Origin: Carnobacterium divergens DSM 20623
Lineage (GTDB): Bacteria; Bacillota; Bacilli; Lactobacillales; Carnobacteriaceae
Direction: 5' to 3'
Assembly (NCBI RefSeq): GCF_000744255.1
Contig: NZ_JQLO01000001.1
Location: forward strand, 372,001-436,000
Length of the DNA stretch: 64,000 bases
Shown here: positions 43,053-56,412 of the stretch, in pieces
How the letters are laid out: every line of letters begins with the position of its first letter
Numbering within the stretch: the first letter of the stretch is position 1
The notes under the pieces: model-generated
Databases searched by the model: none
Seen by the model: only the letters and a program-made list of their open reading frames with translations
What the model was told of the DNA's origin: nothing
Program-made: the position numbers and the translations under genes

Positions 43053-44702
43053 ATGCCAAATTCTTCAATAAATATGGAAGAAGCCGTAGTGGAAGAACAA
43101 ACGGCTCAGGAAAAGATGATTCGTGGCTCAGCTTGGATGACTGCAGGCAGTATTTTTTCAAGGGTATTAGGCGCTATTTATATTATTCCTTGGATGGCTT
43201 GGATGGGCGGTCAAGCAGAGTTAGCGAATGGCTTGTTTGCTAAGGGATACAATCCCTATTCGCTTTTCTTAGTGATTGCAACAGCAGGTGTACCCTCGGC
43301 AATTGCTAAACAAATTTCCTATTATAATGCTCTTGATGAGTATCAAACGGGACGGAAATTGTTTAAAAAAGGCATGATTCTAATGGTAATTACTGGGATT
43401 ATTTGTTTTTTAGCGATGTATTTACTCGCTCCTATTATGGGGGTTGGAAATCCCGATGAAATTAAGGTGATTCGTTCGCTTAGTTGGGCGTTGTTGATTA
43501 TTCCAGGGATGAGTTTGATTCGTGGCTATTTTCAAGGGTATCAAGAGATGGCACCCTCAGCGATTTCGCAGCTGATTGAACAGTTTGCTCGTATTATCTT
43601 TATGTTGGCTGCAACTTTTTTAATTATGAAAGTTTGGCATGGCGAAATGGTAGATGCGGTTACGGCTTCAACTTTTGCTGCTTTTATCGGAGCCATTTTT
43701 AGTTTAGCAGCGTTAGGGTATTATTGGTTGCGTCAAAAGGATCGAATGGATGTCCTTGCAGCAGGAAGCTTAAATCAAATTGAAATTTCAACGAACCAGA
43801 TTTTAGTGGAGATGGTCAAAGAATCCATCCCATTTGTGGTTATTGGTTCAGGAATCACCTTCTTCCAGTTAATCGACCAATACACCTTTGAAAAAATTGT
43901 GCTAGCTACGTCAAAAATTACGTCAGATGAAGCAAAAACGTTGTTTGCGTTGTTTGCATTTAATGCTAATAAATTGATTATGATTACCATTTCTATTGCA
44001 GTAGCAATGGCGGTTACCTCAATTCCGTTGATTACGGAGGCCTTTACTAAAAATTTAGGCAAAGAAGTGCGTAAGCAAATTTCAACGAATATTCAGTTAT
44101 TTTCATTTATCATGTTCCCAGCTGCAATTGGCATGGCGATTGTTGCAGAACCATTGTACACGTTGTTTTATAAGCACAGTGATTTAGGAACAACGATTTT
44201 ACAGCTTTCATCGTGTATGAGTATTATTTTAGGACTATTTACAGTTTTATCTGCGCTTCTTCAATCCTTGAATCAAAATCGTTATGCGATTTTCTGTTTA
44301 ATTGTAGGGATTGGTGTTAAAGGTGCAGTTCAGTATCCGTTAGTATCGATGTTCCAAGCTCAAGGAGCACTTTATGCAACGATTTTTGGTTTTACGGTGT
44401 CTTGCGCGATGATGTTGGTATCATTACAAAAGTTAACCCATTTTCATGTGAAATTTGTGCTAAAACGATTGTTGCTGATTGTGATCATGACCGTGATTAT
44501 GGCACTTGTAACGATTGTGGTTCGGGAAGCTTGTTACTTGTTTATTAGCCCGATGGATCGTGGTTTGGCATTAGTCGTGATGCTCTTATCAGCAGGCGTT
44601 GGTGGTTTTGCTTATATGTATTTGACGTTAAAAACAAGACTGGCTGATCGTTTACTCGGTGATAAGGTTGCAGGCTTAAGAAGAAGATTGAAAATCAAAT
44701 AA
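43053..44702 (+). CDS. YtgP/MurJ-type lipid II flippase (MOP superfamily)
   Basis: The 549-residue protein has about 14 membrane helices. The start of the first helix, R-G-S-A-W-M-T-A-G-S-I-F-S-R-V-L-G-A-I-Y-like, matches the YtgP/SpoVB group of polysaccharide transporters. Bacillar YtgP and its streptococcal orthologue act as MurJ, moving lipid II across the membrane for wall synthesis. The ribosome site is weak. A terminator lies right behind the gene, before the rsuA-like gene. Confidence 0.85.
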   Translation: MPNSSINMEEAVVEEQTAQEKMIRGSAWMTAGSIFSRVLGAIYIIPWMAWMGGQAELANGLFAKGYNPYSLFLVIATAGVPSAIAKQISYYNALDEYQTGRKLFKKGMILMVITGIICFLAMYLLAPIMGVGNPDEIKVIRSLSWALLIIPGMSLIRGYFQGYQEMAPSAISQLIEQFARIIFMLAATFLIMKVWHGEMVDAVTASTFAAFIGAIFSLAALGYYWLRQKDRMDVLAAGSLNQIEISTNQILVEMVKESIPFVVIGSGITFFQLIDQYTFEKIVLATSKITSDEAKTLFALFAFNANKLIMITISIAVAMAVTSIPLITEAFTKNLGKEVRKQISTNIQLFSFIMFPAAIGMAIVAEPLYTLFYKHSDLGTTILQLSSCMSIILGLFTVLSALLQSLNQNRYAIFCLIVGIGVKGAVQYPLVSMFQAQGALYATIFGFTVSCAMMLVSLQKLTHFHVKFVLKRLLLIVIMTVIMALVTIVVREACYLFISPMDRGLALVVMLLSAGVGGFAYMYLTLKTRLADRLLGDKVAGLRRRLKIK

Positions 44703-44703
44703 C

Positions 44704-44756
44704 CAAAAAGGTATCTGGAATTGATGGAAATACTCCATGTTGCAGGTATCTTTTTT
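44704..44756 (+). terminator. Intrinsic terminator of the flippase gene
   Basis: AAAAAGGTATCTG pairs with CAGGTATCTTTTT (two G-U pairs) and T6 follows. It ends only 17 bases before the next start codon. Confidence 0.65.
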
Positions 44757-44772
44757 AGAAGGGAAGTCTGAC

Positions 44773-45495
44773 ATGCGTTTAGATAAATTTTTAGCCCATA
44801 CAGGCTTTGGTACAAGAAAAGAAACAAAGGATTTATTGAAAAAAAAAGCAGTTGAAGTGAATGGTGTATGCGTAAAGGATGGCAAATTTCAAGTTAAACC
44901 GTTTGTCGATCAAGTGGCTGTTTATGGTGAAGTAGTAGCGTATCAAGAATTTATTTATTTAATGCTGCATAAGCCACAAGGGGTTGTAAGTGCGACGATT
45001 GATAATGTGAATCCAACAGTAATTGATTTGTTGACGCCGGCTGAGCAAAATTTTGAGCCTTTTCCTGTTGGACGTTTGGATAAAGACACAGAAGGTCTGT
45101 TAATTTTAACTAATGATGGTGTGTTAGCTCACGAGCTGCTTTCTCCTAAGAAGCATGTTGCAAAGCGCTATGAAGCTACTATAGAAGGAATTGTTACGCA
45201 AGAGGATAGTGATGCTTTTAAAAAAGGGGTTGTCTTGTCTGACGGCTACCAATGCCAAGCAGCAGAGCTAGAAATTGTCAGTGTGATGCCTGACGAAGGG
45301 ACTTCCTCGATTTTTGTGACAATTCATGAAGGGAAATTTCATCAAGTGAAACGAATGTTTGAAGCTTGTGGAAAAAAGGTTGTCTATTTAAAACGAGTCG
45401 CCATGGGATTGTTGGAACTAGATCCTACCTTACCACTTGGCAACTATCGACCGCTCACACAAGAAGAGCTGAATTTATTAAAAGGAATAGACTAA
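44773..45495 (+). CDS. 16S rRNA pseudouridine synthase, RsuA family
   Basis: The 240-residue enzyme starts MRLDKFLAHTGFGTRKE, chosen because GAAGGGAAG lies upstream; a longer reading begins inside the terminator. An N-terminal S4 RNA-binding domain (1-60) is followed by the RsuA/RluB catalytic domain with G-R-L-D-K-D-T-E-G-L-L, whose Asp is catalytic. RsuA modifies U516 of 16S rRNA. Members of this family in Bacillota (YtzG type) are close paralogues, so the exact target site is inferred. Confidence 0.9.
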   Translation: MRLDKFLAHTGFGTRKETKDLLKKKAVEVNGVCVKDGKFQVKPFVDQVAVYGEVVAYQEFIYLMLHKPQGVVSATIDNVNPTVIDLLTPAEQNFEPFPVGRLDKDTEGLLILTNDGVLAHELLSPKKHVAKRYEATIEGIVTQEDSDAFKKGVVLSDGYQCQAAELEIVSVMPDEGTSSIFVTIHEGKFHQVKRMFEACGKKVVYLKRVAMGLLELDPTLPLGNYRPLTQEELNLLKGID

Positions 45496-45496
45496 A

Positions 45497-45535
45497 AAAG
45501 AGAGACACTTCATTTTATAGAAGTGTCTCTCTATT
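45497..45535. terminator. Bidirectional terminator
   Basis: A 13-bp perfect stem (AGAGAGACACTTC) with an 8-base loop lies between two convergent genes. Confidence 0.88.
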
Positions 45536-45538
45536 ACT

Positions 45539-46375
45539 TTAAAAATCAAATTTTGTAGCATAATCTTTCATGACGCAAGGAATCCGCTGGATAATTTGAG
45601 AAGGAAGTGTCACATAATGCGTTTTTGCTAAATCATCACTGATTCGACTATGAAGGTAAACAGCTGCCAAAATGGCTGTTTTACGGTTTGGAAATTGCGC
45701 TAAAAAGCCAGCTAACATGCCGGTTAATGTGTCCCCCATACCACCAGTTGCCATGGCAGGTGTTCCTGCTTCGTTTTTCCAGACTTCCTCTTCAAAATAA
45801 ATTTCTGAATGGTGTTTTTTTAAGACTACTTCTGCCCCTAATTGTTTTCTGAAATGCGCATTTAAATCTTTCGTTTGTTCTTCAATCGTTAAATGGCTCA
45901 ATCGTTGCCATTCTCCTAAGTGAGGAGTATAAACGGTTTGTGCTACAGGTGTTTTAAGATTTTCAGAAGCCATTAAGGTAATCGCATCTCCATCAATGAC
46001 AAGTCTTTGTTGAGGCGTACATGCAGCTAAAACAGCCTTTAAAATTAGTTGCGACTGGTCATCTAGCCCTAAGCCAGGACCAATAACGACGGTTGTCGCT
46101 TTTTTCATATGATGAATGACTTTTGCTGTATCATAACCATCAATCACCATTGCTTCAGGTAATCTAGCGTGAAGTGCTGTATGGTTGCTTGGATGAGTTG
46201 CGACTGTAACAAGACCAGCTCCACTATAAACAGCAGCACTTGCGGCTAAAATAATCGCTCCTCCTAACTCTTGATTGCCACCAATCAAGAGAACATGACC
46301 GTAATTCCCTTTGTAGCTTTCATTTTTTCGTTTTGGTAAAATTCCTTGTACAATATTTTGATTTAATTCTTTCAT
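45539..46375 (-). CDS. nnrD: ADP-dependent NAD(P)H-hydrate dehydratase
   Basis: The 278-residue ribokinase-like enzyme (YjeF C-terminal/CARKD family) repairs damaged NADH and NADPH by dehydrating the hydrate form. G-N-Y-G-H-V-L-L-I-G-G is at the start, V-I-G-P-G-L-G in the middle, L-V-I-D-G-D-A lies before the active site, and G-T-P-A-M-A-T-G-G-M-G-D-T-L-T-G holds the catalytic Asp. The epimerase partner domain is not fused. It starts after AGGAGGAAT and is monocistronic. Confidence 0.93.
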   Translation of the reverse strand: MKELNQNIVQGILPKRKNESYKGNYGHVLLIGGNQELGGAIILAASAAVYSGAGLVTVATHPSNHTALHARLPEAMVIDGYDTAKVIHHMKKATTVVIGPGLGLDDQSQLILKAVLAACTPQQRLVIDGDAITLMASENLKTPVAQTVYTPHLGEWQRLSHLTIEEQTKDLNAHFRKQLGAEVVLKKHHSEIYFEEEVWKNEAGTPAMATGGMGDTLTGMLAGFLAQFPNRKTAILAAVYLHSRISDDLAKTHYVTLPSQIIQRIPCVMKDYATKFDF

Positions 46376-46474
46376 TATTTATTCCTCCTTGATTCCCGAT
46401 GTTCTCTTCTATTATAATAGGAATCTCATAGATTTGCACGAAATGTATTTTTTTAGAAAATTGCTATCCTTGGA

Positions 46475-46503
46475 TTGGTAAATATCGTAAAAAGTGATAT
46501 GAT
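46475..46503 (+). promoter_or_regulatory. Promoter of pepV
   Basis: TTGGTA and TATGAT are 17 bases apart, about 36 bases before the start codon. Confidence 0.55.
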
Positions 46504-46539
46504 TAAGATGTTGAAAATCAAGAAAAGGAGTGTTGATAA

Positions 46540-47949
46540 ATGTCAATTGATTGGAAAAAAGAAGTAGAAAGTAGAAAAGACGATTTATTTGCAGATTTAT
46601 TTACTTTATTAAAAATTGATAGTGTAAGAGACGATAGCAAAGCTTCAGAGGATGCACCAGTAGGTCCAGGACCAAAAGAAGCACTGTTAAAATTTTTAGA
46701 AATTGGCGCTCGTGATGGCTTTGTGACTAAAAATGTTGGCAATTTAGCTGGGCATATTGAATATGGTGCAGGGGATGAAACTTTAGGCGTTTTTGCTCAC
46801 GTAGATGTCGTTCCTGTTGGAAGTGGTTGGACAAATCCTCCATTTGAGCCAGTAATCAAAGATGGGCGTTTATATGCACGTGGTTCAAGTGATGATAAAG
46901 GACCTGGAATGGCTGGTTACTACGCTTTGAAAATCATTAAAGAATTAGGCTTACCAGTTTCTAAACGTGTTCGTTTTATTATTGGAACAGATGAAGAAAG
47001 TGGTTGGAAATGTATGGATCACTATCTAGCAGTTGAAGAAACACCTGATTTTGGTTTTTCTCCAGATGCAGAGTTCCCAATTATCAATGGAGAAAAAGGG
47101 ATTTTAACGGTTCAATTAAGCTTTGGTGGAAATACTGAAGGTGGAGCAAATGAATTAATCAGCTTTAACTCAGGCTTACGTGAAAACATGGTCCCACAAG
47201 ATGCTAAAGCCATTTTTATTTCAGAAGATGCAACTAAAATTGAAAAAGACTTCTTTGATTTTGTGGAACAAAATCCAATTACTGGAACTTGCCATATCGA
47301 AGGCAACCAAGTAACCATTGAAGTAGTTGGGAAAGGCGCTCATGGAATGGAACCAAAAGCTGGAATCAATGCGGCTACTTATTTGGCAACATTCTTAACA
47401 AACTATTCATTTGGTAGCGATGCTAAGCATTACTTGGCTTTAACGACTGAATATCTACACGACGATTCAAGAGCAGCTAAACTTGGGTTGAATTATGTAG
47501 ACGCTGTGATGGGAGACCTAACAGTTAATCCTGGTGTTTTTAATTTTACAGCAAAAGAAGGCGGTTCAATCGCTTTGAATTTCCGTTTCCCACAAGGAAT
47601 TACCATTGAAGAAATTGAAGCTGGCCTTGCAAGTAAATTAGCTGATTTTGGTGTGACGTTGTCTCGTGGCAAAGCACAAACGCCTCACTATGTACCAGCG
47701 GATGACCCATTGGTTCAAACCTTACTTGATGTGTATGAAAAACATACGGGTGAAAAAGGAGTTGAAAAAACCATTGGTGGCGGAACTTATGGTCGCTTAT
47801 TAAAACGCGGAGTAGCCTACGGCGCGATGTTCCCAAATAGCATCGATACAATGCACCAAACCGATGAATTTATGGCGATTGATGATATTATCAATGCAAC
47901 GGTTATTTACGCAGATGCGATTTATCAATTGATTAAAAGTGAAGATTAA
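46540..47949 (+). CDS. pepV: Dipeptidase PepV (M20 metallopeptidase)
   Basis: The 469-residue zinc dipeptidase has metal-binding elements F-A-H-V-D-V-V-P near residue 87, S-S-D-D-K-G-P near 120, and D-E-E-S-G-W near 153, with the lid-domain insert and a final H-Q-T-D-E-F. Length and order match lactic-acid-bacterial PepV, which splits many dipeptides in the cytoplasm during growth on peptides. AAAGGAG precedes the ATG; a strong terminator follows. Confidence 0.95.
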   Translation: MSIDWKKEVESRKDDLFADLFTLLKIDSVRDDSKASEDAPVGPGPKEALLKFLEIGARDGFVTKNVGNLAGHIEYGAGDETLGVFAHVDVVPVGSGWTNPPFEPVIKDGRLYARGSSDDKGPGMAGYYALKIIKELGLPVSKRVRFIIGTDEESGWKCMDHYLAVEETPDFGFSPDAEFPIINGEKGILTVQLSFGGNTEGGANELISFNSGLRENMVPQDAKAIFISEDATKIEKDFFDFVEQNPITGTCHIEGNQVTIEVVGKGAHGMEPKAGINAATYLATFLTNYSFGSDAKHYLALTTEYLHDDSRAAKLGLNYVDAVMGDLTVNPGVFNFTAKEGGSIALNFRFPQGITIEEIEAGLASKLADFGVTLSRGKAQTPHYVPADDPLVQTLLDVYEKHTGEKGVEKTIGGGTYGRLLKRGVAYGAMFPNSIDTMHQTDEFMAIDDIINATVIYADAIYQLIKSED

Positions 47950-47963
47950 CATTTAAGGGAAAT

Positions 47964-48016
47964 AAAAAAGCGATGAAGAAGTGTGGTAAAAACCACATTT
48001 TTTCATCGCTTTTTTT
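47964..48016. terminator. Terminator after pepV, probably bidirectional
   Basis: AAAAAAGCGATGAA pairs with TTTCATCGCTTTTTT, with an inner hairpin TGTGGT-ACCACA. It also faces the minus-strand gene at 48040. Confidence 0.85.
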
Positions 48017-48039
48017 AAGCAGATTTTTTAATAAATAAA

Positions 48040-48580
48040 CTATTTATTTAGATGTTGAATAGCGTAGTCTGCTTCTTCTTGAGTGAATTGTTCGCCATGT
48101 TCAGAAGTTAATTGATCTCGGATCGCTTCAGGGGACATAGACATCGTTTTTTGATAACTTTCAGCTTTTTTAAGAGCATTCTCATTCCAGTCAGCTTTAA
48201 TATTATCAATCGCATATTGAGCAGCCTCAGGAGAGAATTTATCACCATATTCTGAAGTTAATTGATTTTGTATGCCAATTTTAGACATAAACATCAATTT
48301 AGCGTAAGAGTTCGCTTTTTTTAAGGGCAGATGTATACTCAACAGGCACCTCTTTTTCAGGTGCGGGTTCGTTACTTTCTGTCGAATCAGTAGTGCTCTT
48401 ATTTTCTGATTTAGCTTCTGTTTTTCCAGTTTTAGTTGAAGTATCCTTGTCACTTCCTCCAAGTGAATCAACGATAAAAAATAATACTAATACAGCAATA
48501 ACCCAAACCCACCATTTTTTGTAAAAAGGCTTTTTCTTTACATAAACATTTCCATTCTCATCTTTAATCTTCTTAGCCAT
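48040..48580 (-). pseudogene. Ltp-domain membrane protein, frameshifted
   Basis: The gene starts MAKKIKDENGNVY after AAGGAG and has one membrane helix (K-K-W-W-V-W-V-I-A-V-L-V-L-F-F-I) and a Ser/Thr/Glu linker. At the A7 run at 48316-48322 the frame shifts: reading stops at S-E-L-L-R in one frame and continues as A-N-S-Y-A-K in another. With one A fewer the product would be about 179 residues, ending in two Ltp-type repeats (S-A-L-K-K-A-N-S-Y-A-K and N-A-L-K-K-A-E-S-Y-Q-K, each with L-T-S-E-x-G). Ltp domains occur on surface proteins, including a phage lipoprotein that blocks superinfection. The A-run may vary in length or be a sequencing error. Confidence 0.78.
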
Positions 48581-48601
48581 AATAAGCTCCTTTTTTTTGA
48601 G

Positions 48602-48639
48602 TAAAATAACTTTGAATACCAACGGGTAAAGTTATTTTA
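48602..48639. repeat. 12-bp inverted repeat in the leader of the Ltp gene
   Basis: TAAAATAACTTT (48602-48613) and AAAGTTATTTTA (48628-48639) are perfect complements around a 14-base loop, just upstream of the ribosome site on the minus strand. It could be an operator or a leader hairpin. The rest of 48640-48960 is AT-rich, with no gene that I can support. Confidence 0.5.
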
Positions 48640-48959
48640 TTCTGTATATAATTGATCAAACTGTGTGATTATACCATAATCTTTATCTGGTAACCATAAA
48701 AAAAATGGTATTTATATAACTAAAATCAAGAGTTTTTTTGAAGAATCTTCATGAAAAGAATCTAAACATAATAGAATGATTATTTCCTGAATAGTATATA
48801 GATTACTATTATTTTTTTAAATTTTTAGTTTTAAAGGTAAAATTAAAAAAATTCCTATAGATCCAATGAAAAACCAAATAAGTTAATTATGAGTAAATCG
48901 CATTAATCGATTTTAGTTTTATGGACAGGCTAAGTTATAAAGGGCCTAAATAAAAAAAT

Positions 48960-48998
48960 GAACATAGAAAATGCTGCTACAAAAGAAAAGTAGCAGCA
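48960..48998 (-). terminator. Terminator after the small peptide gene
   Basis: A perfect 9-bp stem (TGCTGCTAC with GTAGCAGCA) is followed on the minus strand by TTTTC and a further T-rich stretch. Confidence 0.7.
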
Positions 48999-49010
48999 GT
49001 TATCTTGTTT

Positions 49011-49088
49011 TTAGCCGAATGGCGTATCGCCATATGTTGAAGAATTTCCAACAGTTAAAATTAAATCCAATAAATTATTGATATTCAT
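49011..49088 (-). CDS. 25-residue peptide, candidate signalling pheromone precursor
   Basis: A 25-codon frame begins ATG, 6 bases after a perfect AGGAGG, and ends TAA. The product starts MNINNLLD, has a hydrophobic centre (L-I-L-T-V), and ends T-Y-G-D-T-P-F-G. It is divergent from a PlcR-like HTH-TPR regulator with 104 bases between starts, and has its own -10 (TATAAT, minus strand of 49113-49118) and terminator. This is the arrangement of Rgg/SHP-type peptide pairs. The mature signal would likely come from the C-terminus. Gene reality is strongly supported; the signalling role is inferred. Confidence 0.72.
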   Translation of the reverse strand: MNINNLLDLILTVGNSSTYGDTPFG

Positions 49089-49112
49089 TTTGTTATCCTC
49101 CTATTATATGAT

Positions 49113-49149
49113 ATTATAATAATGTTGAACTTGTTATCATCATATAACA
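49113..49149. promoter_or_regulatory. Dyad operator between peptide and regulator genes
   Basis: TGTTAT-N6-ATAACA (49132-49149) is a perfect dyad. For the peptide gene it covers the -35 region, where no good -35 hexamer exists, while TATAAT lies at the -10. This is typical of an activator-dependent promoter. The divergent regulator is the obvious candidate binder. Confidence 0.55.
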
Positions 49150-49192
49150 GTTGTTTGTTAAAAGCAACAAAAATTTGAAAGGGGAAGTTAAA

Positions 49193-50077
49193 GTGATCAT
49201 TTTAGGGGAGAAAGTAAAAGAGTTAAGAAAGAATAAACGATTTAGTCAAAAGCAATTAGCAGAAGGTATCTGTACCCAAGTAACAATTAGTAAAATTGAA
49301 AATCACAATAGTATCCCAACGATGAACATTTTAAGTAAATTATGTGAAAGACTAGATGTTGACATCCACGATATATGTATTAATGAAGGTGATTCTAATG
49401 AAAATTATGCAATTTTTCAACAAGTGGATCAACTTTGTGACCTTTTTCAATACAAAGAAGCTTATGAAATTTTAAAGATAAAACTCAATGAAGAGCGTCT
49501 TTCAACGTTACATGAAAAAAAGATGTATTTTTATTTGATGGGGAAAATTTTGTTAATGGGCTTTAATGATATTGAAGAAGCGTTACATTATTTAAACTTA
49601 GAGTTAATTGTAGATCGTAGTGAACGAGTTGATTTTACAGATGTCTTGGTTTCTAATACGATTGGGGTAGCCTATCATTTAAAAGAGGAAACGAACAAAG
49701 CAAAAATCTATTTTGAACAATCGATTCGTGAGTTAGAAAAAATAGCTAATATTGATTTAAAGAATTTAGACAAAATTTTATTGATTTACTTTAATACAGC
49801 TAAGTTTTATTCAGATATTGGTGATTATCAAGAAGCAGTCACTCTTTGCGAAACGGGTATTCAAATGGCAGAATCTGAAAAAACAACTTCGCAACTAGAT
49901 AAACTCTATTATGAAAAAGCTTTTAATGAGGCAATGAATGGACAATTAGCAGAAGCAAAGAAAGGTTATTTTATCGCGATGGCCTTTGCGATTATGAATC
50001 AAAATGATGTGATTATTGAGATAATCAAGAAAAATATGCATAAATTTAAACTGACATTTGATGAGTTGTTTATTTGA
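49193..50077 (+). CDS. PlcR-like HTH-TPR transcriptional regulator (RRNPP type)
   Basis: The 294-residue regulator has an N-terminal XRE helix-turn-helix (residues 5-60, with R-F-S-Q-K-Q-L-A-E-G-I-C-T-Q-V-T-I-S-K-I-E) and about five TPR-like helical repeats in the rest. Size and order match PlcR of Bacillus cereus. A GTG start follows AAAGGGGAAG; the longer reading upstream lacks a ribosome site and enters the operator. Such proteins bind a re-imported peptide with the TPR part and then control promoters. The divergent 25-residue peptide is the likely ligand. Confidence 0.85.
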   Translation: MIILGEKVKELRKNKRFSQKQLAEGICTQVTISKIENHNSIPTMNILSKLCERLDVDIHDICINEGDSNENYAIFQQVDQLCDLFQYKEAYEILKIKLNEERLSTLHEKKMYFYLMGKILLMGFNDIEEALHYLNLELIVDRSERVDFTDVLVSNTIGVAYHLKEETNKAKIYFEQSIRELEKIANIDLKNLDKILLIYFNTAKFYSDIGDYQEAVTLCETGIQMAESEKTTSQLDKLYYEKAFNEAMNGQLAEAKKGYFIAMAFAIMNQNDVIIEIIKKNMHKFKLTFDELFI

Positions 50078-50154
50078 TTGAAGAAAAAGGGTAATTACTA
50101 GCTAAAAACAAAAGGTTTGTTATGATAAAGGTAATAAGAAAGTAGGTGCTGAAA

Positions 50155-50424
50155 ATGAGTTATAAAATTACATTTCATACAGTTGATGGAAAAGCAATTA
50201 TTGTCGATGATGTTGTTGCAGAAAATCAAGTAGATGCATGGAAAGAAGTATGTGAACTAAACAGTGAAGGTTATTTGATTACTGTAAATAGTCGCCAAAC
50301 TCTTCATCAAGTAATGAAACATCAGTTGGTAAGCATTGAAACCAAGGACAAGTCTGCTTCTTCTTTTAAAAATACGGAGACGGCAATGACGGCAATCGAT
50401 GCATTGTCAAATATGGGCATTTAA
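50155..50424 (+). CDS. Small protein of unknown function
   Basis: The 89-residue protein starts MSYKITFHTVDG after AGGTG; a start three codons upstream is less well spaced. It is predicted soluble: beta strands in the first third, then a helix (A-W-K-E-V-C-E-L) and a Ser/Thr-rich tail. It lies 77 bases after the regulator on the same strand, so co-transcription or control by that regulator is possible. No family recognised. Confidence 0.65.
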   Translation: MSYKITFHTVDGKAIIVDDVVAENQVDAWKEVCELNSEGYLITVNSRQTLHQVMKHQLVSIETKDKSASSFKNTETAMTAIDALSNMGI

Positions 50425-50428
50425 ACAA

Positions 50429-50468
50429 AGAAGCACTTTAGTTCATTTTAACTAAAGTGTTTTTTTGC
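50429..50468. terminator. Terminator between convergent small genes
   Basis: GCACTTTAGTT pairs with AACTAAAGTG around CATTTT, followed by T7. It overlaps the end of the minus-strand gene at 50448. Confidence 0.82.
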
Positions 50469-50669
50469 TGTCATTTCAAAGATTTGGAGTAAGGATGAAT
50501 GAATTTGATAGGTAACACCTGCGTAAAAAATTGTTACGGAAGGGTTATCATATAAATGGTTGTCTTTATCAATTAACCAGATATCTAAGGGAACCCCGTC
50601 AATGGTTGATTCAGGATCGAGTGTTACACACGTCCATTCGCCAACTAAATTTGCATAAAGATAGCGCAA
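50448..50669 (-). CDS. Small protein of unknown function
   Basis: The 73-residue protein is read from a TTG 7 bases after GAGGTG; a TTG seven codons further upstream precedes that site. It has G-E-W-T-C-V-T-L-D-P-E-S near the start and Y-Q-I-H-S-S-L-L-Q near the end, probably mixed strand and helix, without signal or membrane helix. A TATACT box about 30 bases upstream supports expression. No family recognised. Confidence 0.55.
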   Translation of the reverse strand: MRYLYANLVGEWTCVTLDPESTIDGVPLDIWLIDKDNHLYDNPSVTIFYAGVTYQIHSSLLQIFEMTAKKHFS

Positions 50670-50740
50670 AATAGGACACCTCACTTTCAATTTTAGTATA
50701 GCGAATTTTTTCTAAAAATAAAAGGTGTTTTTTAAATTTG

Positions 50741-50779
50741 TATAAAAATAGTCAAAAGCAAGTGTATGCTTTTGACTAT
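50741..50779 (-). terminator. Terminator of the alcohol dehydrogenase gene
   Basis: A perfect 13-bp stem (ATAGTCAAAAGCA) with a 6-base loop has T5 after it on the minus strand. Confidence 0.85.
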
Positions 50780-50789
50780 TTTTAGATGC

Positions 50790-51971
50790 CTACAAAGCAT
50801 TTAAATAAATACGGCGACTAATTTCTAACGTTTGATCACGGCGTTCTGAAATAGCTGTTAACTGATGTTTTTCAAGTTGAGCAACAAGTGGTTCCACCAC
50901 TTCTTCACCTAAATCGTACTCTTTAAAGTGAGTAGGTGCCCCAAGTTGTTCAAAAAAGGCGCGGGTTTTTGAAATCGCTAATTGAATTTTTTCATCCTCT
51001 GTTGCATCTGTAATGTGCCAGACACGTTCCGCATATTGAATTAATTTTTCACGTTTTTCATGTTGACGGATTTCCATTAAAGAAGGCAATACAATAGCTA
51101 ATGTTCGTGCATGGTCAATATGATACAAGGCAGTAATCTCATGGCCTAAACTATGACTTGCCCAGTCTTGAGGAACTCCAGGAGCTAAAATACGATTTAG
51201 CGCATTTGTAGCAGTCCACATAAAGTTAGCTCGTAAATTATAATCATGATTCTTTTCATCAATAACCTTTGGTCCAATTTCAATCAGTGTTTGTAATAAC
51301 CCTTCTGAAAAACGGTCTTGCACCATGCCGCCAACTGGATAAGTTAAATATTGCTCCATAATATGAACAAAGGAGTCAATTACGCCATTTGCTAATTGTC
51401 TAGTTGGTAGTGTGTACGTTAATTCAGGCTCTAAAATTGAAAATTTAGGGAAGGAAAAGGGGCTGCCAAAAGATAGCTTGGCCTTCTTTTCAACAAAAGT
51501 AACCACTGCGCCATTATTCATTTCTGAACCCGTTGCTGGTAAGGTTAACACAGTACCAAATGGTAGGGATTTAGTAACAGGCAAACCTTTGCCAATACCA
51601 GCGCCGAATATATCAATCGGATCTCCATCAAAAATAGCACCTGCTGCGATAAATTTCGTTCCATCAATAACTGATCCTCCGCCGACAGCTAATAGGAATT
51701 CATAGTTTTCTGCTTTTACTAATTCTACAGCCTTCATTAAGGTTTCATATGTTGGGTTGGCTTCGATTCCACCAAATTCTCCAATCGTACGGTTTGGTAA
51801 AGCTTCTTTGACCTTATCTAATGTTCCGAAACGAACGACACTTCCACCGCCATATAAAATCAGTACCTTTTTATTCTTAGGAACTAAACGATCTAGTTCA
51901 GGAATACGATTTTTCCCAAAGACGATTTCTGTGGGATTGTAAAAATTAAAATTTGAAATTTCAGTTTGCAT
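50790..51971 (-). CDS. Iron-containing alcohol dehydrogenase (BdhA/YqhD type)
   Basis: The 393-residue group III alcohol dehydrogenase reduces aldehydes or oxidises alcohols with NAD(P). The nucleotide-binding region has V-L-I-L-Y-G-G-G-S-V and L-L-A-V-G-G-G-S-V-I-D-G-T-K; metal ligands lie in G-V-I-D-S-F-V-H-I-M-E and the H-S-L-G-H-E-I-T-A-L-Y-H-I-D-H block. It resembles YugJ/BdhA butanol dehydrogenases and E. coli YqhD; the substrate is not fixed. It is monocistronic with its own terminator. Confidence 0.92.
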   Translation of the reverse strand: MQTEISNFNFYNPTEIVFGKNRIPELDRLVPKNKKVLILYGGGSVVRFGTLDKVKEALPNRTIGEFGGIEANPTYETLMKAVELVKAENYEFLLAVGGGSVIDGTKFIAAGAIFDGDPIDIFGAGIGKGLPVTKSLPFGTVLTLPATGSEMNNGAVVTFVEKKAKLSFGSPFSFPKFSILEPELTYTLPTRQLANGVIDSFVHIMEQYLTYPVGGMVQDRFSEGLLQTLIEIGPKVIDEKNHDYNLRANFMWTATNALNRILAPGVPQDWASHSLGHEITALYHIDHARTLAIVLPSLMEIRQHEKREKLIQYAERVWHITDATEDEKIQLAISKTRAFFEQLGAPTHFKEYDLGEEVVEPLVAQLEKHQLTAISERRDQTLEISRRIYLNAL

Positions 51972-52048
51972 AAAACACCATCCTAAATGTGAGACTTTAA
52001 AGTAAGTATACTCCTAACAAGTACACATAGAAAGTAATAAACCCTATT

Positions 52049-52082
52049 AAAAAAGACGAATCCTATTCGATTCGTCTCTTTT
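52049..52082 (-). terminator. Terminator overlapping the end of the mgtC-like gene
   Basis: AGACGAATC pairs with GATTCGTCT and T6 follows on the minus strand. The stem begins within the stop-codon region. Confidence 0.82.
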
Positions 52083-52743
52083 AATTAATTTTTTCGACAG
52101 TCACATGAGGCAATTCTTGCAAAGCTTGAACCAGTTCCATTTCTTCTTCGTAATTTTTAGTCCGAATGGTGAAAGAAACGTGATAGACTTTTGTTTCTTC
52201 AAAAATTTCTCGTTTCGATTCAAAAGTTTGATAAATTTTTTGTTTGCTTTGCATAAGCTCTGTAATCTTAGGTAAGGAATCTGCTTTTGTTGTAGAAATT
52301 TGAAAAGAAGTTGTGTGATGTTCTATTTTTCGAAACATCAGATTCGATAGTTCAAAACCAACTAGCGTTAAAATGGTAGCACTCACACTAATCCAATACA
52401 TGCCACCACCAACAGCTAAACCAATACCAGAAGTTGCCCAAATACCAGCCGCACTGGTCAAACCTACCACACTTTGTTTTTGAATGATAATCATACCAGC
52501 TCCAATAAAGCCAATACCGCTGACAACTTGTGCAGCTACACGACTCACATCTAAGCTATAGCCAGGTTGACCCACAACGTCCCCAAATCCATGTTGAGAG
52601 ACAATCATTAAAAGGGCACTTCCTAAACAAACTAAAAAATGTGTCCGAATTCCAGCTTCTTCTGCACGGAACTCACGATCTACACCAATGATTCCGCCTA
52701 AAAAACTGGCTAAAATTAAGCGTAATAATAAAATCCAATCCAT
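52081..52743 (-). CDS. MgtC/SapB-family membrane protein
   Basis: The 220-residue protein starts MDWILLLRL, 9 bases after AAAGGA. The MgtC membrane domain (about 1-135, with G-V-D-R-E, the conserved R-T-H-F-L-V-C-L-G-S-A-L, and G-I-G-F-I-G-A-G) is followed by a C-terminal ACT-like cytoplasmic domain. MgtC relatives help survival at low magnesium and modulate ATP synthase or cell-envelope processes in other bacteria. It is alone in its unit. Confidence 0.88.
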   Translation of the reverse strand: MDWILLLRLILASFLGGIIGVDREFRAEEAGIRTHFLVCLGSALLMIVSQHGFGDVVGQPGYSLDVSRVAAQVVSGIGFIGAGMIIIQKQSVVGLTSAAGIWATSGIGLAVGGGMYWISVSATILTLVGFELSNLMFRKIEHHTTSFQISTTKADSLPKITELMQSKQKIYQTFESKREIFEETKVYHVSFTIRTKNYEEEMELVQALQELPHVTVEKIN

Positions 52744-52910
52744 TTTCATCAGTCCTTTTGTTAACAATTCTTACTATATAGTATAGCATAAGAAAACCAG
52801 AAGAGGGCTTGTAATAATTTGCCACTAGCTTGTTACAAAACTAATATAATATTACAAGGAGTGCTATGCTATAATTTAGAAAACGAAAACAAGATTCAAA
52901 GGAGGACACT

Positions 52911-54212
52911 GTGAAAAAAATCATTCAACTAAGTTTAATTTCAACACTGCTATTGTCAACACTTTCCGTTTTACCAGCAACTCAAGTATCAGCGGAAACT
53001 ACTGAAGAAATAAATCAAAAACAACAAGAACTCGATTCAAAATCAGCAACTGTTGAAAATGGAATCGAAGCTACTGAGGAATCATTAAAATCATTAGAAA
53101 CTGAAAAAAGTACCTTAGAAAAAGAAGTTCAATCTCTACAAAAACAAATCGATGAGGTCATGAAAAAATTAGAAGAGCAACAAGTAAACTTAAAAGATTC
53201 AGAAGTAAAAATCAATGAGTTAAAAGAAAAAATAGCTACTTTAGAAGACCGAATTCAACAACGTACACAGAAATTAGAAAACCAAGCTCGCTTCGTCCAA
53301 ACGGATGGCGACACACATAGTCTAGCAACGATTGTTTTAACTGCTGAAAATTTTTCTGATTTAATCGGAAAAGTAACGGCCGTGACTCAATTGGTGTATG
53401 CAAACAAACAAATTGTAACGGATCAAGAAAACGATCAAAAAGAATTAAAAACAGCTGAAACTGCAGCTATTAATGAAAAAAAGATAGCTGAAAATTTAAA
53501 AAATGAAATTGAACGTTCGAAGAATAATTTGTATGCTCAAAAATCAGAATTAGATGATAAAATCCTTCAAATTGCAACAAAATATCAACTTACGGAAGCC
53601 GAAAAAAACACCTTGATTTCGGAAAAAAATACAATTGCTACTCAAACAAGTAAACTTACCAGTGATTTAAAAGCTGAGCAAGATCGCATTGTGGCTGAGC
53701 AAGCAGCAAAAGTTGCAGCAGATAAGAAGGCGGAAGAAATGGCGACGCCAACAACTAATACTCCGCCAGTTAGCAATGAAGGAACGCCGACCCCTCCAAA
53801 TACAGGAGGAACAACCTTTATTCGACCAAGTAATGGATACGTATCGTCACCATTTGGTTATCGTAGCGATCCTTTTACAGGAGCACAAACCTTCCATAAA
53901 GGAATCGATTTAGCAGGAAGTGGAGCAATTAAAGCAGCAGCTGACGGCGTTGTAGAGTATTCAAATTACAACAATGGCGGTTATGGTTATTTAGTAATCA
54001 TCAATCATGGCGCTATTAACGGCGTCAATTATCAAACATACTATGCTCATATGGCACCTGGAAGCCTAACAATGGTGGCAGGACAAACGGTTCGTCAAGG
54101 GCAACAAATTGGGGTTATGGGAACAAGTGGTTCCTCAACCGGTGTGCACCTTCATTTTGAAGTTCGAGAAAATGGCACACCAGTGAATCCAGCACCATTT
54201 ATTGGATTGTAA
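52911..54212 (+). CDS. Secreted M23 peptidase with N-terminal coiled coil
   Basis: The 433-residue cell-wall hydrolase has a signal peptide (about 1-29, ending Q-V-S-A-E), a long coiled coil (about 30-270, like PcsB/CwlO N-termini), a Pro/Thr linker, and a C-terminal M23 LytM domain. Zinc motifs are H-K-G-I-D-L-A and H-L-H-F-E-V with a central H-M-A; all catalytic positions are present, so it should be active. A GTG start lies after AAAGGAGG. Such proteins cut peptide crosslinks at division sites and are often controlled by FtsEX. It is monocistronic. Confidence 0.92.
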   Translation: MKKIIQLSLISTLLLSTLSVLPATQVSAETTEEINQKQQELDSKSATVENGIEATEESLKSLETEKSTLEKEVQSLQKQIDEVMKKLEEQQVNLKDSEVKINELKEKIATLEDRIQQRTQKLENQARFVQTDGDTHSLATIVLTAENFSDLIGKVTAVTQLVYANKQIVTDQENDQKELKTAETAAINEKKIAENLKNEIERSKNNLYAQKSELDDKILQIATKYQLTEAEKNTLISEKNTIATQTSKLTSDLKAEQDRIVAEQAAKVAADKKAEEMATPTTNTPPVSNEGTPTPPNTGGTTFIRPSNGYVSSPFGYRSDPFTGAQTFHKGIDLAGSGAIKAAADGVVEYSNYNNGGYGYLVIINHGAINGVNYQTYYAHMAPGSLTMVAGQTVRQGQQIGVMGTSGSSTGVHLHFEVRENGTPVNPAPFIGL

Positions 54213-54257
54213 TTATCTGTTATACTAGTTAAGACGTCACAAAAATAAACCAAACCA

Positions 54258-54290
54258 AGCGTCTTTTGAGTTTACTCAAAGGACGCTTTT
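54258..54290 (+). terminator. Terminator of the M23 peptidase gene
   Basis: AAGCGTC-TTTTGAGT pairs with ACTCAAA-GGACGCTT with one mismatch and a T-rich tail. Confidence 0.8.
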
Positions 54291-54319
54291 AGTTAAGAGC
54301 GAACTAGGAGGCAATAACG

Positions 54320-55075
54320 ATGGAGACAATTCTATCTGTTAAAAATGAACGAGTGAAACAATGGAAAAAATTACAAACGAGAAAAGGCAGAGAAAAAGCA
54401 AAACGTTATTTGATTGAAGGGTTTCATTTAGTAGAAGAGGCGATTCACTATGATGCACCGATTGTTGAACTTTTAATCAGTGAAGAACATGAGGACTTAG
54501 CTTTTAAATACCCACTAGATAAACAAGTTATGATTTCAAAAGAAATTGCCAATCAATTAAGCGAAACACCTACAACTCAAGGTGTGTTCGCGGTAATTTC
54601 CTTAGAGAAAAATCAAGCAACGCCAACTTTTACCAAGCCATTTCTATGTTTAGATACTGTGCAAGACCCTGGCAATTTAGGAACGATGATTCGTACAGCC
54701 GATGCTGCGGGGTTTGGTGGAGTCGTGTTAGGCAGTGGATCAGTGGACATGTATAATAGCAAAGTTTTACGTTCAATGCAGGGGAGCCACTTTCATCTAC
54801 CTATCTTTGAAGGCGATTTAACTGAATGGTTTGAAACGTTTAAGCAGCAGAATGTTCCTATTTATGGGACAGAGTTAAACGAAGCCGCTGTTAGCTACAC
54901 GAGTATTCCTAAAACAGATGCATTTGCTATCGTAATGGGCAATGAAGGCAATGGGATGCAGGCTGATTTATTAGCTAAAACAACTAAGAATCTCTATATT
55001 CCAATAACAGGAAAAGCAGAGTCCTTAAATGTTGCTGTAGCAGCAGGAATTTTAATGTTTACATTGAAAAAATAA
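54320..55075 (+). CDS. SpoU/TrmH-family RNA 2'-O-methyltransferase
   Basis: The 251-residue SPOUT-fold enzyme has an N-terminal substrate-binding domain (1-95, starting with N-E-R-V-K-Q-W-K-K-L), then the SPOUT domain. It has the three motifs D-P-G-N-L-G-T-M-I-R-T-A-D-A-A, I-V-M-G-N-E-G-N-G-M, and S-L-N-V-A-V-A-A-G-I, which form the knotted SAM site. It methylates a ribose in rRNA or tRNA; the target is unknown. AGGAGG precedes the ATG. In related genomes this gene is often near pheST, as here. Confidence 0.92.
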   Translation: METILSVKNERVKQWKKLQTRKGREKAKRYLIEGFHLVEEAIHYDAPIVELLISEEHEDLAFKYPLDKQVMISKEIANQLSETPTTQGVFAVISLEKNQATPTFTKPFLCLDTVQDPGNLGTMIRTADAAGFGGVVLGSGSVDMYNSKVLRSMQGSHFHLPIFEGDLTEWFETFKQQNVPIYGTELNEAAVSYTSIPKTDAFAIVMGNEGNGMQADLLAKTTKNLYIPITGKAESLNVAVAAGILMFTLKK

Positions 55076-55229
55076 GTTGTGACAAAAAAGTTAAGGATTG
55101 TTTAAAATTCTATAAATTGAATTCCTTCTACTATTAATCGTAGTAAAAAGGTGTAAAATAGAAGTTAGCAAGAAAATAGTAGAGCGATTCAGCTTCATAT
55201 CAAGAACTCTAAAAAAAGGAAGTCGTTAA

Positions 55230-55745
55230 ATGACGGAACCAAAATGGAAAACAGATACCGAATATATTGGACATATTGAGGATTTAATCAACCGCAAAGA
55301 AGTGCAACAACTTTCTGAGTATACTCAACATCATTTTACAACCAGACTTGAACATTCCATTAGTGTGTCTTACCGAAGTTACCGAATTAGTAAAAAATTC
55401 GGCTGGAATGCACGTTCAACAGCCAGAGCAGGTTTGCTACATGATCTGTTTTACTATGACTGGAGAACAACGAAGTTTGATGAAGGAACACATGCCTATG
55501 TACATCCAAGAATGGCTTGTGAAAATGCTGAAAAATTAACACCATTGTCTGATTTAGAAAAAGACATTATTATTAAACATATGTGGTTAGCAACGATTGC
55601 GCCACCTCGTTATAAAGAAAGTTACGTTGTAACTTTTGTCGATAAGTATTGCGCTTGTGCGGAGGTTATTGCGCCATTGATGGGTCGCGCTACTGCTAGT
55701 GTGAAAAACACTTGGTTAAAACTGAAAGTATCCGTTCAATCATAA
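55230..55745 (+). CDS. HD-domain hydrolase
   Basis: The 171-residue protein has the HD signature: a first His in R-L-E-H-S-I-S-V-S-Y, then G-L-L-H-D-L-F-Y-Y-D, H-P-R-M-A, and a final D-K-Y metal position. It probably is a metal-dependent phosphohydrolase acting on a nucleotide or similar compound. It follows the SpoU gene by 154 bases and ends with a strong terminator. Substrate unknown. Confidence 0.88.
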   Translation: MTEPKWKTDTEYIGHIEDLINRKEVQQLSEYTQHHFTTRLEHSISVSYRSYRISKKFGWNARSTARAGLLHDLFYYDWRTTKFDEGTHAYVHPRMACENAEKLTPLSDLEKDIIIKHMWLATIAPPRYKESYVVTFVDKYCACAEVIAPLMGRATASVKNTWLKLKVSVQS

Positions 55746-55786
55746 AAAAAAGTTTAACTCGTCAATTTGCGAGTTAAACTTTTTTA
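55746..55786. terminator. Bidirectional terminator
   Basis: AAAAAAGTTTAACTCG pairs with CGAGTTAAACTTTTTT between convergent genes. Confidence 0.9.
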
Positions 55787-55797
55787 TTGACTAAAAA

Positions 55798-56412
55798 TTA
55801 TAAGCCATTTTTTAAAGCTGTTGCTACTTGAACCAAACGTTTTGCTTGATCTGCAACAGCAGGTTGGATATTTTTTGCATCCACTACTTCTCCGTCTTGA
55901 CTGATTGTCGCGCTGCTTCCGTAAGGGTTACCACCTGCGCCGAAGGTACTTTGATTGATGTAACCAGTTGGGACAAGAATGGTACTCCAATGTTGCATTA
56001 CAGTATAAATACTTTGAATGACTTCTTCTTGGCCACCATGTGGGTTACCAGCTGTTGCCATTGCTGTGACAGCTTTATTTGCTAATTTTCCTTGTGCCCA
56101 AAGTCCACCTTGCAAGTCAATAAATTGTTTTAATTGGCTAGCCATCACACCAAAACGTGAAGGAGAGCTAAAAATAATTCCGTCTGCCCATTCTAAATCA
56201 GCGCTTGTTGCTTCAGGAATATCAGCCGTTTCATTAACATTTTTACGCCATAAAGGATTTGAATCAATAGCAACATCAGGGGCTAATTCATGAGCTTTTA
56301 ATAAACGAACTTCAGCACCAGCTTCTTTTGCAGCGTCAGCTGCCCAACGAGCCATTTGGGTATTTCCTCCTGTTGAACTATAGTAAATGACAGCAATTTT
56401 TGTGTTTGACAT
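55798..56412 (-). CDS. wrbA: NAD(P)H:quinone oxidoreductase, WrbA family
   Basis: The 204-residue flavodoxin-fold protein has the FMN phosphate loop Y-Y-S-S-T-G-G-N-T near residue 10, S-S-P-S-R-F-G-V-M near 82, and T-A-G-N-P-H-G-G-Q-E in the middle. WrbA reduces quinones by two electrons and protects from redox stress. GGAGG lies before the ATG. It is divergent from an HxlR regulator with conserved Cys residues, a common pairing for quinone-responsive control. Confidence 0.9.
   Translation of the reverse strand: MSNTKIAVIYYSSTGGNTQMARWAADAAKEAGAEVRLLKAHELAPDVAIDSNPLWRKNVNETADIPEATSADLEWADGIIFSSPSRFGVMASQLKQFIDLQGGLWAQGKLANKAVTAMATAGNPHGGQEEVIQSIYTVMQHWSTILVPTGYINQSTFGAGGNPYGSSATISQDGEVVDAKNIQPAVADQAKRLVQVATALKNGL

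What the first reader, a model, noticed from the sequence alone, without database searches (positions are those of the whole stretch)
49011..50077. Compact peptide-pheromone system: 25-residue peptide divergent from a PlcR-like regulator
A 25-codon gene with perfect AGGAGG, own -10 and terminator faces an HTH-TPR regulator of PlcR size. A perfect dyad covers the missing -35 of the peptide promoter, as expected for positive feedback. The peptide end T-Y-G-D-T-P-F-G is unlike the PapR, SHP or ComS signals that I know.
Basis: partly seen in the sequence, partly recalled or inferred. Interest (0 to 1): 0.82.

Follow-up and report, generated by a model that had tools for sequence, protein, structure and literature searches.

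The report
PlcR-type receptor with leaderless peptide signal
A tiny gene encoding a 25-residue peptide sits back to back with a peptide-sensing regulator, and the same pairing recurs across Carnobacterium and Enterococcus chromosomes and plasmids, which suggests a bacterial signalling system whose peptide lacks the usual export tag.

Summary
The 25-codon ORF (49011-49088, minus; MNINNLLDLILTVGNSSTYGDTPFG) has a perfect SD and a terminator and is divergent from a 294-aa HTH-TPR regulator (49193-50077); a profile of its family matches PlcR (E 7.6e-25). The pairing is conserved: 11 of 20 receptor genes in 3 same-genus genomes, 17 of 17 Enterococcus orthologues, and plasmids of E. faecalis and C. 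maltaromaticum. Of 40 peptides (16-27 aa), 33 end in [YF]G[ND]x2-5. In 15 orthologues the last 7 codons show pN 0.04, pS 0.63: translated, C-terminus constrained. Their N-terminal parts hold 72 D/E and 3 K/R, so no Sec- or SHP-type leader is recognisable. The dyad is within chance and unique in the genome. Best reading: a PlcR-type (RRNPP) receptor-peptide pair with a leaderless or atypical-leader propeptide; export, sign of regulation and targets unknown. New variant of a known kind. The most interesting extension is a receptor-peptide-receptor module on E. faecalis plasmids.

The parts
49011..49088 (-). 25-codon peptide gene MNINNLLDLILTVGNSSTYGDTPFG, stop TAA 49011-49013; predicted signal = C-terminal ~7-9 residues
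   Evidence: 78/78 bases identical in G001; paralogue in the same genome ends STYGNISYI
49097..49102 (-). Shine-Dalgarno AGGAGG, 8 nt before the ATG
   Evidence: (SD match 6, spacing 8)
49139..49144 (-). -10 TATGAT of the promoter pattern common to the family (TTGNTT-N17-TATNAT); candidate
   Evidence: 9 of 13 upstream regions, expected 0.05 (pattern chosen by eye); only third best by simple score in the window
49162..49167 (-). -35 TTGCTT of the same candidate promoter
49113..49118 (-).
   Evidence: best simple score, 10.5
49132..49149 (.). dyad TGTTAT-N6-ATAACA; not beyond chance
48968..48998 (-). intrinsic terminator of the peptide gene (stem TGCTGCTAC/GTAGCAGCA, T-run)
   Evidence: I3; G001 has a stem-loop at the same place with a matched change on both arms (GCTGCT/AGCAGC to GTTGCT/AGCAAC; read)
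49193..50077 (+). PlcR-type HTH-TPR regulator, 294 aa, GTG start behind AGGGGA
   Evidence: HTH_3 1.6e-11; PlcR 6.7e-9; profile to PlcR 7.6e-25

Best explanation
A receptor-peptide pair of the RRNPP superfamily, PlcR/TprA side. The divergent gene makes a short propeptide with no recognisable Sec or SHP-type leader; its C-terminal 7-9 residues (about STYGDTPFG) are the signal. Shown: the ORF is conserved beside receptors, coding, and (in the Enterococcus orthologues) C-terminally constrained; the receptor family matches PlcR over HTH and TPR parts. Inferred: the peptide leaves the cell by a non-Sec route (an EcsB-type protein is encoded in the genome), is trimmed, returns through an Opp-type permease and binds the TPR groove; the receptor then changes its grip on the shared intergenic region and so sets peptide expression. 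Relief of repression, as in TprA/PhrA, is slightly favoured because in paralogue L016 a perfect 12-bp-arm dyad, and in L058 and L009 a poorer one, lies across the -35/-10 region of the candidate peptide promoter; activation as in PlcR is not excluded. The confidence is for the receptor-ligand pairing; whether the peptide leaves the cell is a further question (first rival, which overlaps with this reading).
For: Pairing: 11 of 20 receptor genes at E<=1e-20 in the 3 genomes of the genus have the divergent ORF; 17 of 17 Enterococcus g22 loci at E<=3.1e-94; 2 pairs in G286; E. faecalis plasmids 5 of 5 viewed of 9 that match; C. maltaromaticum plasmids 3 of 4 viewed. In all DNA held (1.11 M strand-bases, mostly receptor flanks, with overlapping copies) 31 of 31 distinct SD-led 14-29-aa ORFs ending [YF]G[ND]x2-5 are ORFs already found beside receptors. 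Selection: last 7 codons pS 0.63, pN 0.041; codons 2-13 pS 0.53, pN 0.30 over 15 orthologues. Receptor: profile to PlcR positions 6-267, E 7.6e-25; Rgg2 (4yv6) by 99 N-terminal positions only. Weak co-divergence of receptors and peptide ends, Mantel r 0.26, 68 of 5000 permutations as high, n=18. EcsB E 6.4e-118, 6 SBP_bac_5 proteins.
Against: No expression, binding or phenotype data. 9 of the 20 same-genus receptor genes and 11 of 13 viewed in G378 have no such peptide. No operator or regulon was found for the window pair. No Sec leader, so export is assumed. For the window gene itself the coding test rests on one sister genome, where 78/78 identity stands beside 124/130 upstream. Co-divergence is weak and not corrected for phylogeny. 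The AlphaFold model was poor (pLDDT 60) and gave no structural test.
Confidence: 0.8

Rival explanations
1. The peptide acts inside the producing cell as a ligand or micro-regulator of the adjacent receptor (autoregulatory timer or damper), with no cell-cell signalling. This overlaps with the best explanation as to the pairing.
For: No Sec or SHP-type leader: 3 K/R and 72 D/E in 511 N-terminal residues of 40 peptides. No ABC exporter was recognised by eye among the ORFs of 44000-56000 (no family search of the neighbours was made).
Against: Leaderless peptides are known to act between cells (LCP class, PMC10518010, abstract and section 6 part 1 read); several paralogues with different endings in one genome look like separate channels.
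Confidence: 0.25
2. The regulator is a peptide-independent repressor and the small ORF a regulatory leader or translated by-product.
For: Receptors without the ORF are common.
Against: C-terminal purifying selection, own terminator, related endings beside receptors 32-54% identical to the window's, 31 of 31 specificity.
Confidence: 0.05
3. Member of the LCP/RopB class (ultrashort leaderless peptides read by the Rgg-like RopB clan).
For: Divergent leaderless peptide, strong SD; that class also reaches Enterococcaceae and Carnobacteriaceae (PMC10518010 section 6 part 1).
Against: The profile matches PlcR over its length and Rgg2 by the N-terminal part only; no entry named RopB is among the 35 PDB sequences at E<=1e-3. 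Peptides are 16-27 aa with a polar end, not 8-10 aa and hydrophobic.
Confidence: 0.07

Closest known systems
PlcR-PapR (Bacillus cereus group)
   Same: Receptor size, HTH-TPR architecture, profile match; signal at the C-terminus of a short propeptide; D-x-P-F core shared with PapR7 ADLPFEF (abstract start of PMC6568020, listing).
   Different: Peptide gene divergent, 25 codons, no basic leader. papR as a longer Sec-exported gene beside plcR on the same strand is recalled. Here in Carnobacterium and Enterococcaceae.
TprA-PhrA (Streptococcus pneumoniae)
   Same: PlcR homologue with the peptide gene in the opposite direction; peptide relieves repression (PMC7595303 passages).
   Different: PhrA is Sec-exported (same passages). 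Endings differ (PhrA sequence recalled only).
LCP class (RopB-SIP and relatives)
   Same: Leaderless, divergent, SD-led peptide (PMC10518010).
   Different: Receptor clan Rgg/RopB; peptides mostly 8-10 aa and hydrophobic.
PrgX/TraA with iCF10/iAD1 and cCF10/cAD1 (E. faecalis plasmids; details recalled)
   Same: E. faecalis plasmids; receptors between repA and traE in two of them; possible host-plasmid signal pair.
   Different: PlcR-type receptors in duplicate around one leaderless peptide gene ending (S/G)TYGNLPHV or SPYGNLPHV.

Membership tests
RRNPP receptor-peptide pairs (signature in PMC10075063, passages read) | Receptor 250-500 aa with HTH and peptide-binding TPRs | tested here: met
   294 aa; HTH_3 1.6e-11; TPR_2 only 25.8 bits against cut-off 27, but the family profile aligns with PlcR 6-267 across the TPR part
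RRNPP receptor-peptide pairs (signature in PMC10075063, passages read) | Small propeptide gene adjacent to the receptor | tested here: met
RRNPP receptor-peptide pairs (signature in PMC10075063, passages read) | Propeptide with Sec signal (or SHP-type profile) | tested here: not met
   by composition only: 1 of 40 peptides has K/R in residues 2-8; SignalP not available. The paper puts pairs without a secretion tag but with an SD in its 'loose' level
RRNPP receptor-peptide pairs (signature in PMC10075063, passages read) | Peptide binds receptor and changes transcription | not testable with these tools
   needs experiment
PlcR subfamily | Receptor related to PlcR over HTH and TPR parts | tested here: met
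   6.7e-9; 7.6e-25
PlcR subfamily | Longer Sec-exported PapR-like gene beside the receptor on the same strand (recalled) | tested here: not met
   divergent 25-codon gene
PlcR subfamily | PapR-like C-terminal core D-x-P-F | tested here: met
   window GDTPFG; G[ND]xP[FYHW] in 13 of 40 peptides, so not universal in the family
LCP/RopB class | Receptor of the RopB (Rgg) clan | tested here: inconclusive
   against: (Rgg2 by its N-terminal part only), no Rgg family at 1e-3; but no tree or comparison with RopB sequences was made
LCP/RopB class | 8-10-aa hydrophobic leaderless peptide, divergent | tested here: not met
   divergent and leaderless, but 16-27 aa and a polar end
TprA-PhrA | Oppositely oriented Phr gene with Sec leader; derepression | tested here: inconclusive
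   orientation met; leader not met; derepression not testable

The most novel reading that the evidence does not exclude
A distinct class of PlcR-type signalling that has replaced the Sec leader by a short acidic or uncharged N-terminus, diversified into several parallel channels per genome, and carried by E. faecalis plasmids (2 of the 9 matching records typed conjugative) as repA | receptor | peptide | receptor, with traE next in two of them. The plasmid peptide of two records (STYGNLPHV) differs by one residue from that of an E. faecalis-like chromosome (STYGNVPHV), and plasmid receptors R1 are the nearest relatives of that chromosomal receptor in the tree (fork 95/74), so that the plasmid could listen to, or mimic, its host's signal when deciding on transfer.
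Probability: 0.3. Interest if true: 0.85.

Novelty: new variant of a known kind. Interest (0 to 1): 0.68.

Why it matters
It gives candidate ligands to PlcR-like receptors of Carnobacterium and Enterococcus, suggests why Sec-leader-based surveys would rank such pairs low, and offers a possible plasmid-host signal pair that can be tested directly with synthetic nonapeptides. It also poses a clear export question: how does a peptide without basic leader residues leave the cell, if it does.

Tried and rejected
The dyad as operator: not beyond shuffles, one pair broken in the sister species, no further copies. A shared operator across paralogues: over 9 promoters a palindrome centre 5 nt upstream of the -10 scored best (0.57 of pairs matched; mean 0.35, sd 0.07 over 100 centres), by eye owing to L016, L058 and L009 (one search lists exact dyads of 6 bp or more there for L016 and L058, none for L009), and not clear in the window, so not claimed for it. 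AlphaFold of the window protein with two relatives gave pLDDT 60; no fold search was made on it. Viral contigs: 73 pattern stretches, none a relative. One genome-contig scan gave 5 loci, 2 Enterococcus with the pair and 3 Streptococcus matching in the HTH only (the three were not screened but were in the pool). Lower-scoring Lactobacillales relatives have no peptide of this type: 0 of 9 (L049-L057), 0 of 13 (L071-L083). Of the 12 loci L126-L137, five have one and seven have none (L128, L129, L130, L132, L135, L136, L137). An SD-led ORF without the motif beside L066/L136 was left out of the 40. Tree: rows L071, L072, L073, L075 and L081 dropped out because my start-finding pattern failed on them; L111 rows were labelled STYGNLPHV though that peptide ends GTYGNLPHV; L066/L136 and L067/L137 are the same genes twice. 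Pfam and NCBIfam know none of 7 peptides submitted of the 40. Literature: searches showed no report of these peptides in the rows displayed; several lists were cut (25 of 63, 15 of 64, 15 of 26, 8 of 24, 10 of 41). One search for six motif strings gave 11 papers, on venom peptides, T-cell receptors and tankyrase motifs. The J Bacteriol 2020 paper on E. faecalis chromosomal RRNPP homologues is not held, so I cannot say whether these receptors or peptides are discussed there; supplementary tables of RRNPP_detector and of the LCP paper were not readable.

Full report
Observation. The window ORF (49011-49088, minus) reads MNINNLLDLILTVGNSSTYGDTPFG, with AGGAGG 8 nt before the ATG and a stem-loop with T-run after the stop. 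It is divergent from a 294-aa protein (49193-50077) with HTH_3 (1.6e-11) and weak TPR hits. phmmer finds PlcR (2qfc, 6.7e-9); a profile of 20 relatives finds PlcR at 7.6e-25 over chain positions 6-267, while Rgg2 (4yv6; named in a passage of PMC9765709) aligns over 99 N-terminal positions only. The window is part of a 2.62-Mb contig. A contig of the same-genus genome G002 carries a stretch 98.25% identical over 3.4 kb to a C. maltaromaticum plasmid, so the genus is probably Carnobacterium.

Is the small ORF real? The same genome holds a second receptor (54% identical) with a divergent 23-codon ORF MLLEELVSLAEGSISTYGNISYI. In the three genomes of the genus, 11 of 20 receptor genes at E<=1e-20 have such an ORF, starting 103-161 nt from the matched receptor start; the other nine are L005, L010, L011, L012, L014, L015, L017, L021 and L022 (eight of them, not L015, looked at again). 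L015 is a broken gene with two in-frame stops. One of the eleven, L019, ends STYTSIGFI and departs from the motif. Of 18 Enterococcus g22 genomes with a match, 17 have an orthologue at E<=3.1e-94 and all 17 have the peptide ORF (15, 2); the 18th, G378, has lower-scoring paralogues, of which 2 of 13 viewed have one. G286 has two pairs, ending SVRGNAPHQ and STYGNVPHV.

Coding evidence. Among 15 g22 orthologues the heptapeptide YGNTGHV is nearly fixed (15 of 15 at G15, N16, G18, H19 and V20; Y in 13, T in 14) while most of its codons vary synonymously: pS 0.63, pN 0.041 for codons 14-20, against 0.53 and 0.30 for codons 2-13. Between the window and G001 the ORF is identical at 78 of 78 bases, the 130 bases upstream at 124, and the downstream alignment at 75 of 153 columns, so for the window gene itself this comparison shows conservation, not yet selection on the reading frame; the terminator stem at the same place shows a matched change on both arms (read). 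Over all DNA held (1.11 million strand-bases, chiefly flanks of receptors, with overlapping copies), each of 31 distinct SD-led 14-29-aa ORFs ending in [YF]G[ND]x2-5 is one already found beside a receptor; there was no other hit.

What kind of peptide? Of forty distinct peptides of 16-27 aa, 33 end in [YF]G[ND]x2-5 and 16 contain [ST][TP][YF]G[ND]; the seven others are looser. The parts before the motif contain 511 residues, with 72 D/E but 3 K/R, and one peptide of 40 has K/R within residues 2-8. This composition argues against a Sec signal and against the basic-plus-hydrophobic SHP leader; SignalP was not available. G[ND]xP[FYHW] occurs in 13 of 40, matching the D-L-P-F core of PapR7 ADLPFEF (abstract start of PMC6568020 in the listing; passages of the same paper say the PFEF core is the more conserved part).

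Promoter and operator. TTGNTT-N17-TATNAT occurs upstream of 9 of 13 Carnobacterium peptide genes (expected 0.05 by dinucleotide shuffles). Two cautions: the pattern was picked by eye from these same sequences, and the 13 include two pairs of close orthologues and one pair of close paralogues. L008 and L018 have a similar motif with N18. In the window it is TTGCTT 49162-49167 and TATGAT 49139-49144. The start site must be mapped. In paralogue L016 a perfect dyad with 12-bp arms, and in L058 a shorter one, lies across the -35/-10 region, the placing expected of a repressor; L009 resembles them only imperfectly, by eye. For the window this remains unproven.

Family history. On a tree of 51 receptors all peptide-bearing ones fall in one branch of 45 (support 100/100), which leaves out six rows of family f9; five further distant rows had dropped out before the tree. 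Within the branch peptide-bearing and peptide-less members mix (12 changes; shuffled mean 17.2; 7 of 500 shuffles as low). Repeated loss, leaving orphan receptors, is one likely reading. Distances of receptors and peptide ends correlate weakly (Mantel r 0.26, 68 of 5000 permutations, n=18). Distribution at profile thresholds: 122 of 395 Lactobacillales genomes at E<=1e-45 (none of 22 lower-scoring loci viewed has the peptide), 25 of 105 Enterococcaceae at 1e-62, 2 of 398 Bacilli at 1e-55, the window's own genome being one of the two. In these profile searches only the best few candidates per genome are scored.

Plasmids. Nine E. faecalis plasmid records of PLSDB match the stretch with the peptide and the start of R2 (typed conjugative 2, mobilizable 2, non-mobilizable 5). 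The five viewed (pEK4S, pMP8-1, a plasmid of ES-109, LR962456, LR962594) have two receptor genes flanking one peptide gene, which ends SPYGNLPHV (two), GTYGNLPHV (one) or STYGNLPHV (two). In the three annotated ones this lies next to a replication initiator gene, and in pEK4S and pMP8-1 a gene annotated traE follows R2 after about 0.7 kb. pEK4S is typed conjugative with MobP2, VirB4 and VirD4-like genes. The G286 chromosome is 99.3% identical over 3.8 kb to a contig filed as an E. faecalis phage but carrying host-like genes; its peptide STYGNVPHV differs by one residue from STYGNLPHV, and its receptor groups with the plasmid R1 receptors (95/74, not among the best-supported forks). That suggests, but does not show, host-plasmid cross-talk.

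Mechanism. Most likely the peptide is a pheromone precursor: exported without Sec, trimmed, re-imported and bound by the TPR domain, with feedback on the shared intergenic region. The genome has an EcsB homologue (6.4e-118; its kinship with PptB is recalled) and six SBP_bac_5 proteins; these make the route possible but do not tie it to the peptide. TprA/PhrA (PlcR homologues, opposite orientation, derepression; passages of PMC7595303) is the nearest mechanistic model. Membership in the LCP/RopB class is not supported: the receptor profile is PlcR-like and the peptides are longer and polar at the end (PMC10518010, abstract and section 6 part 1 read), though no tree with RopB was made.

Novelty. 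The kind (RRNPP receptor with adjacent peptide) is known; the leader-free peptide for PlcR-type receptors, its conserved ending and the plasmid module were not seen in the displayed rows of the searches listed under Tried and rejected. The RRNPP_detector paper (passages) notes E. faecalis candidate receptors with local similarity to Rap, PlcR or Rgg, and reports SD-only peptides without a secretion tag in a 'loose' tier, so some of these pairs may sit unremarked in its tables, which I could not read.

Noticed in passing
L099 (G378:C26:3500-15500): Eight receptor paralogues in head-to-tail tandem over about 7.5 kb in one Enterococcus genome, with a single motif-bearing peptide gene (MLINFIIEIVPYGNAPW) at the start of the array.
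   Followed up: partly
L013/L103 (G001:C4:39870-40619): Receptor with an in-frame deletion that removes much of the HTH but keeps the TPR part, beside an intact SD-led peptide gene (MDITFITPYGDLPLWG, TTG start): possibly a decoy receptor or a signaller that no longer responds.
   Followed up: no
window 48040-48622: By eye, a lipoprotein-like gene split over two frames on the minus strand between the dipeptidase-like gene and the peptide gene; two of its word strings were not found in any frame of the corresponding stretch of G001.
   Followed up: partly
L031-L045, around the peptide ORF: AACTAATTTTTT just before the SD and AAAAAATTAGTT just after the stop form a potential long-range stem around the peptide gene in a number of orthologues; the downstream arm varies (by eye).
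   Followed up: no
OR846587.1 (L114): Record labelled Enterococcus phage Efs 1-1-1, 161.6 kb, carries a stretch 99.3% identical to a bacterial chromosome (G286), probably host DNA.
   Followed up: partly
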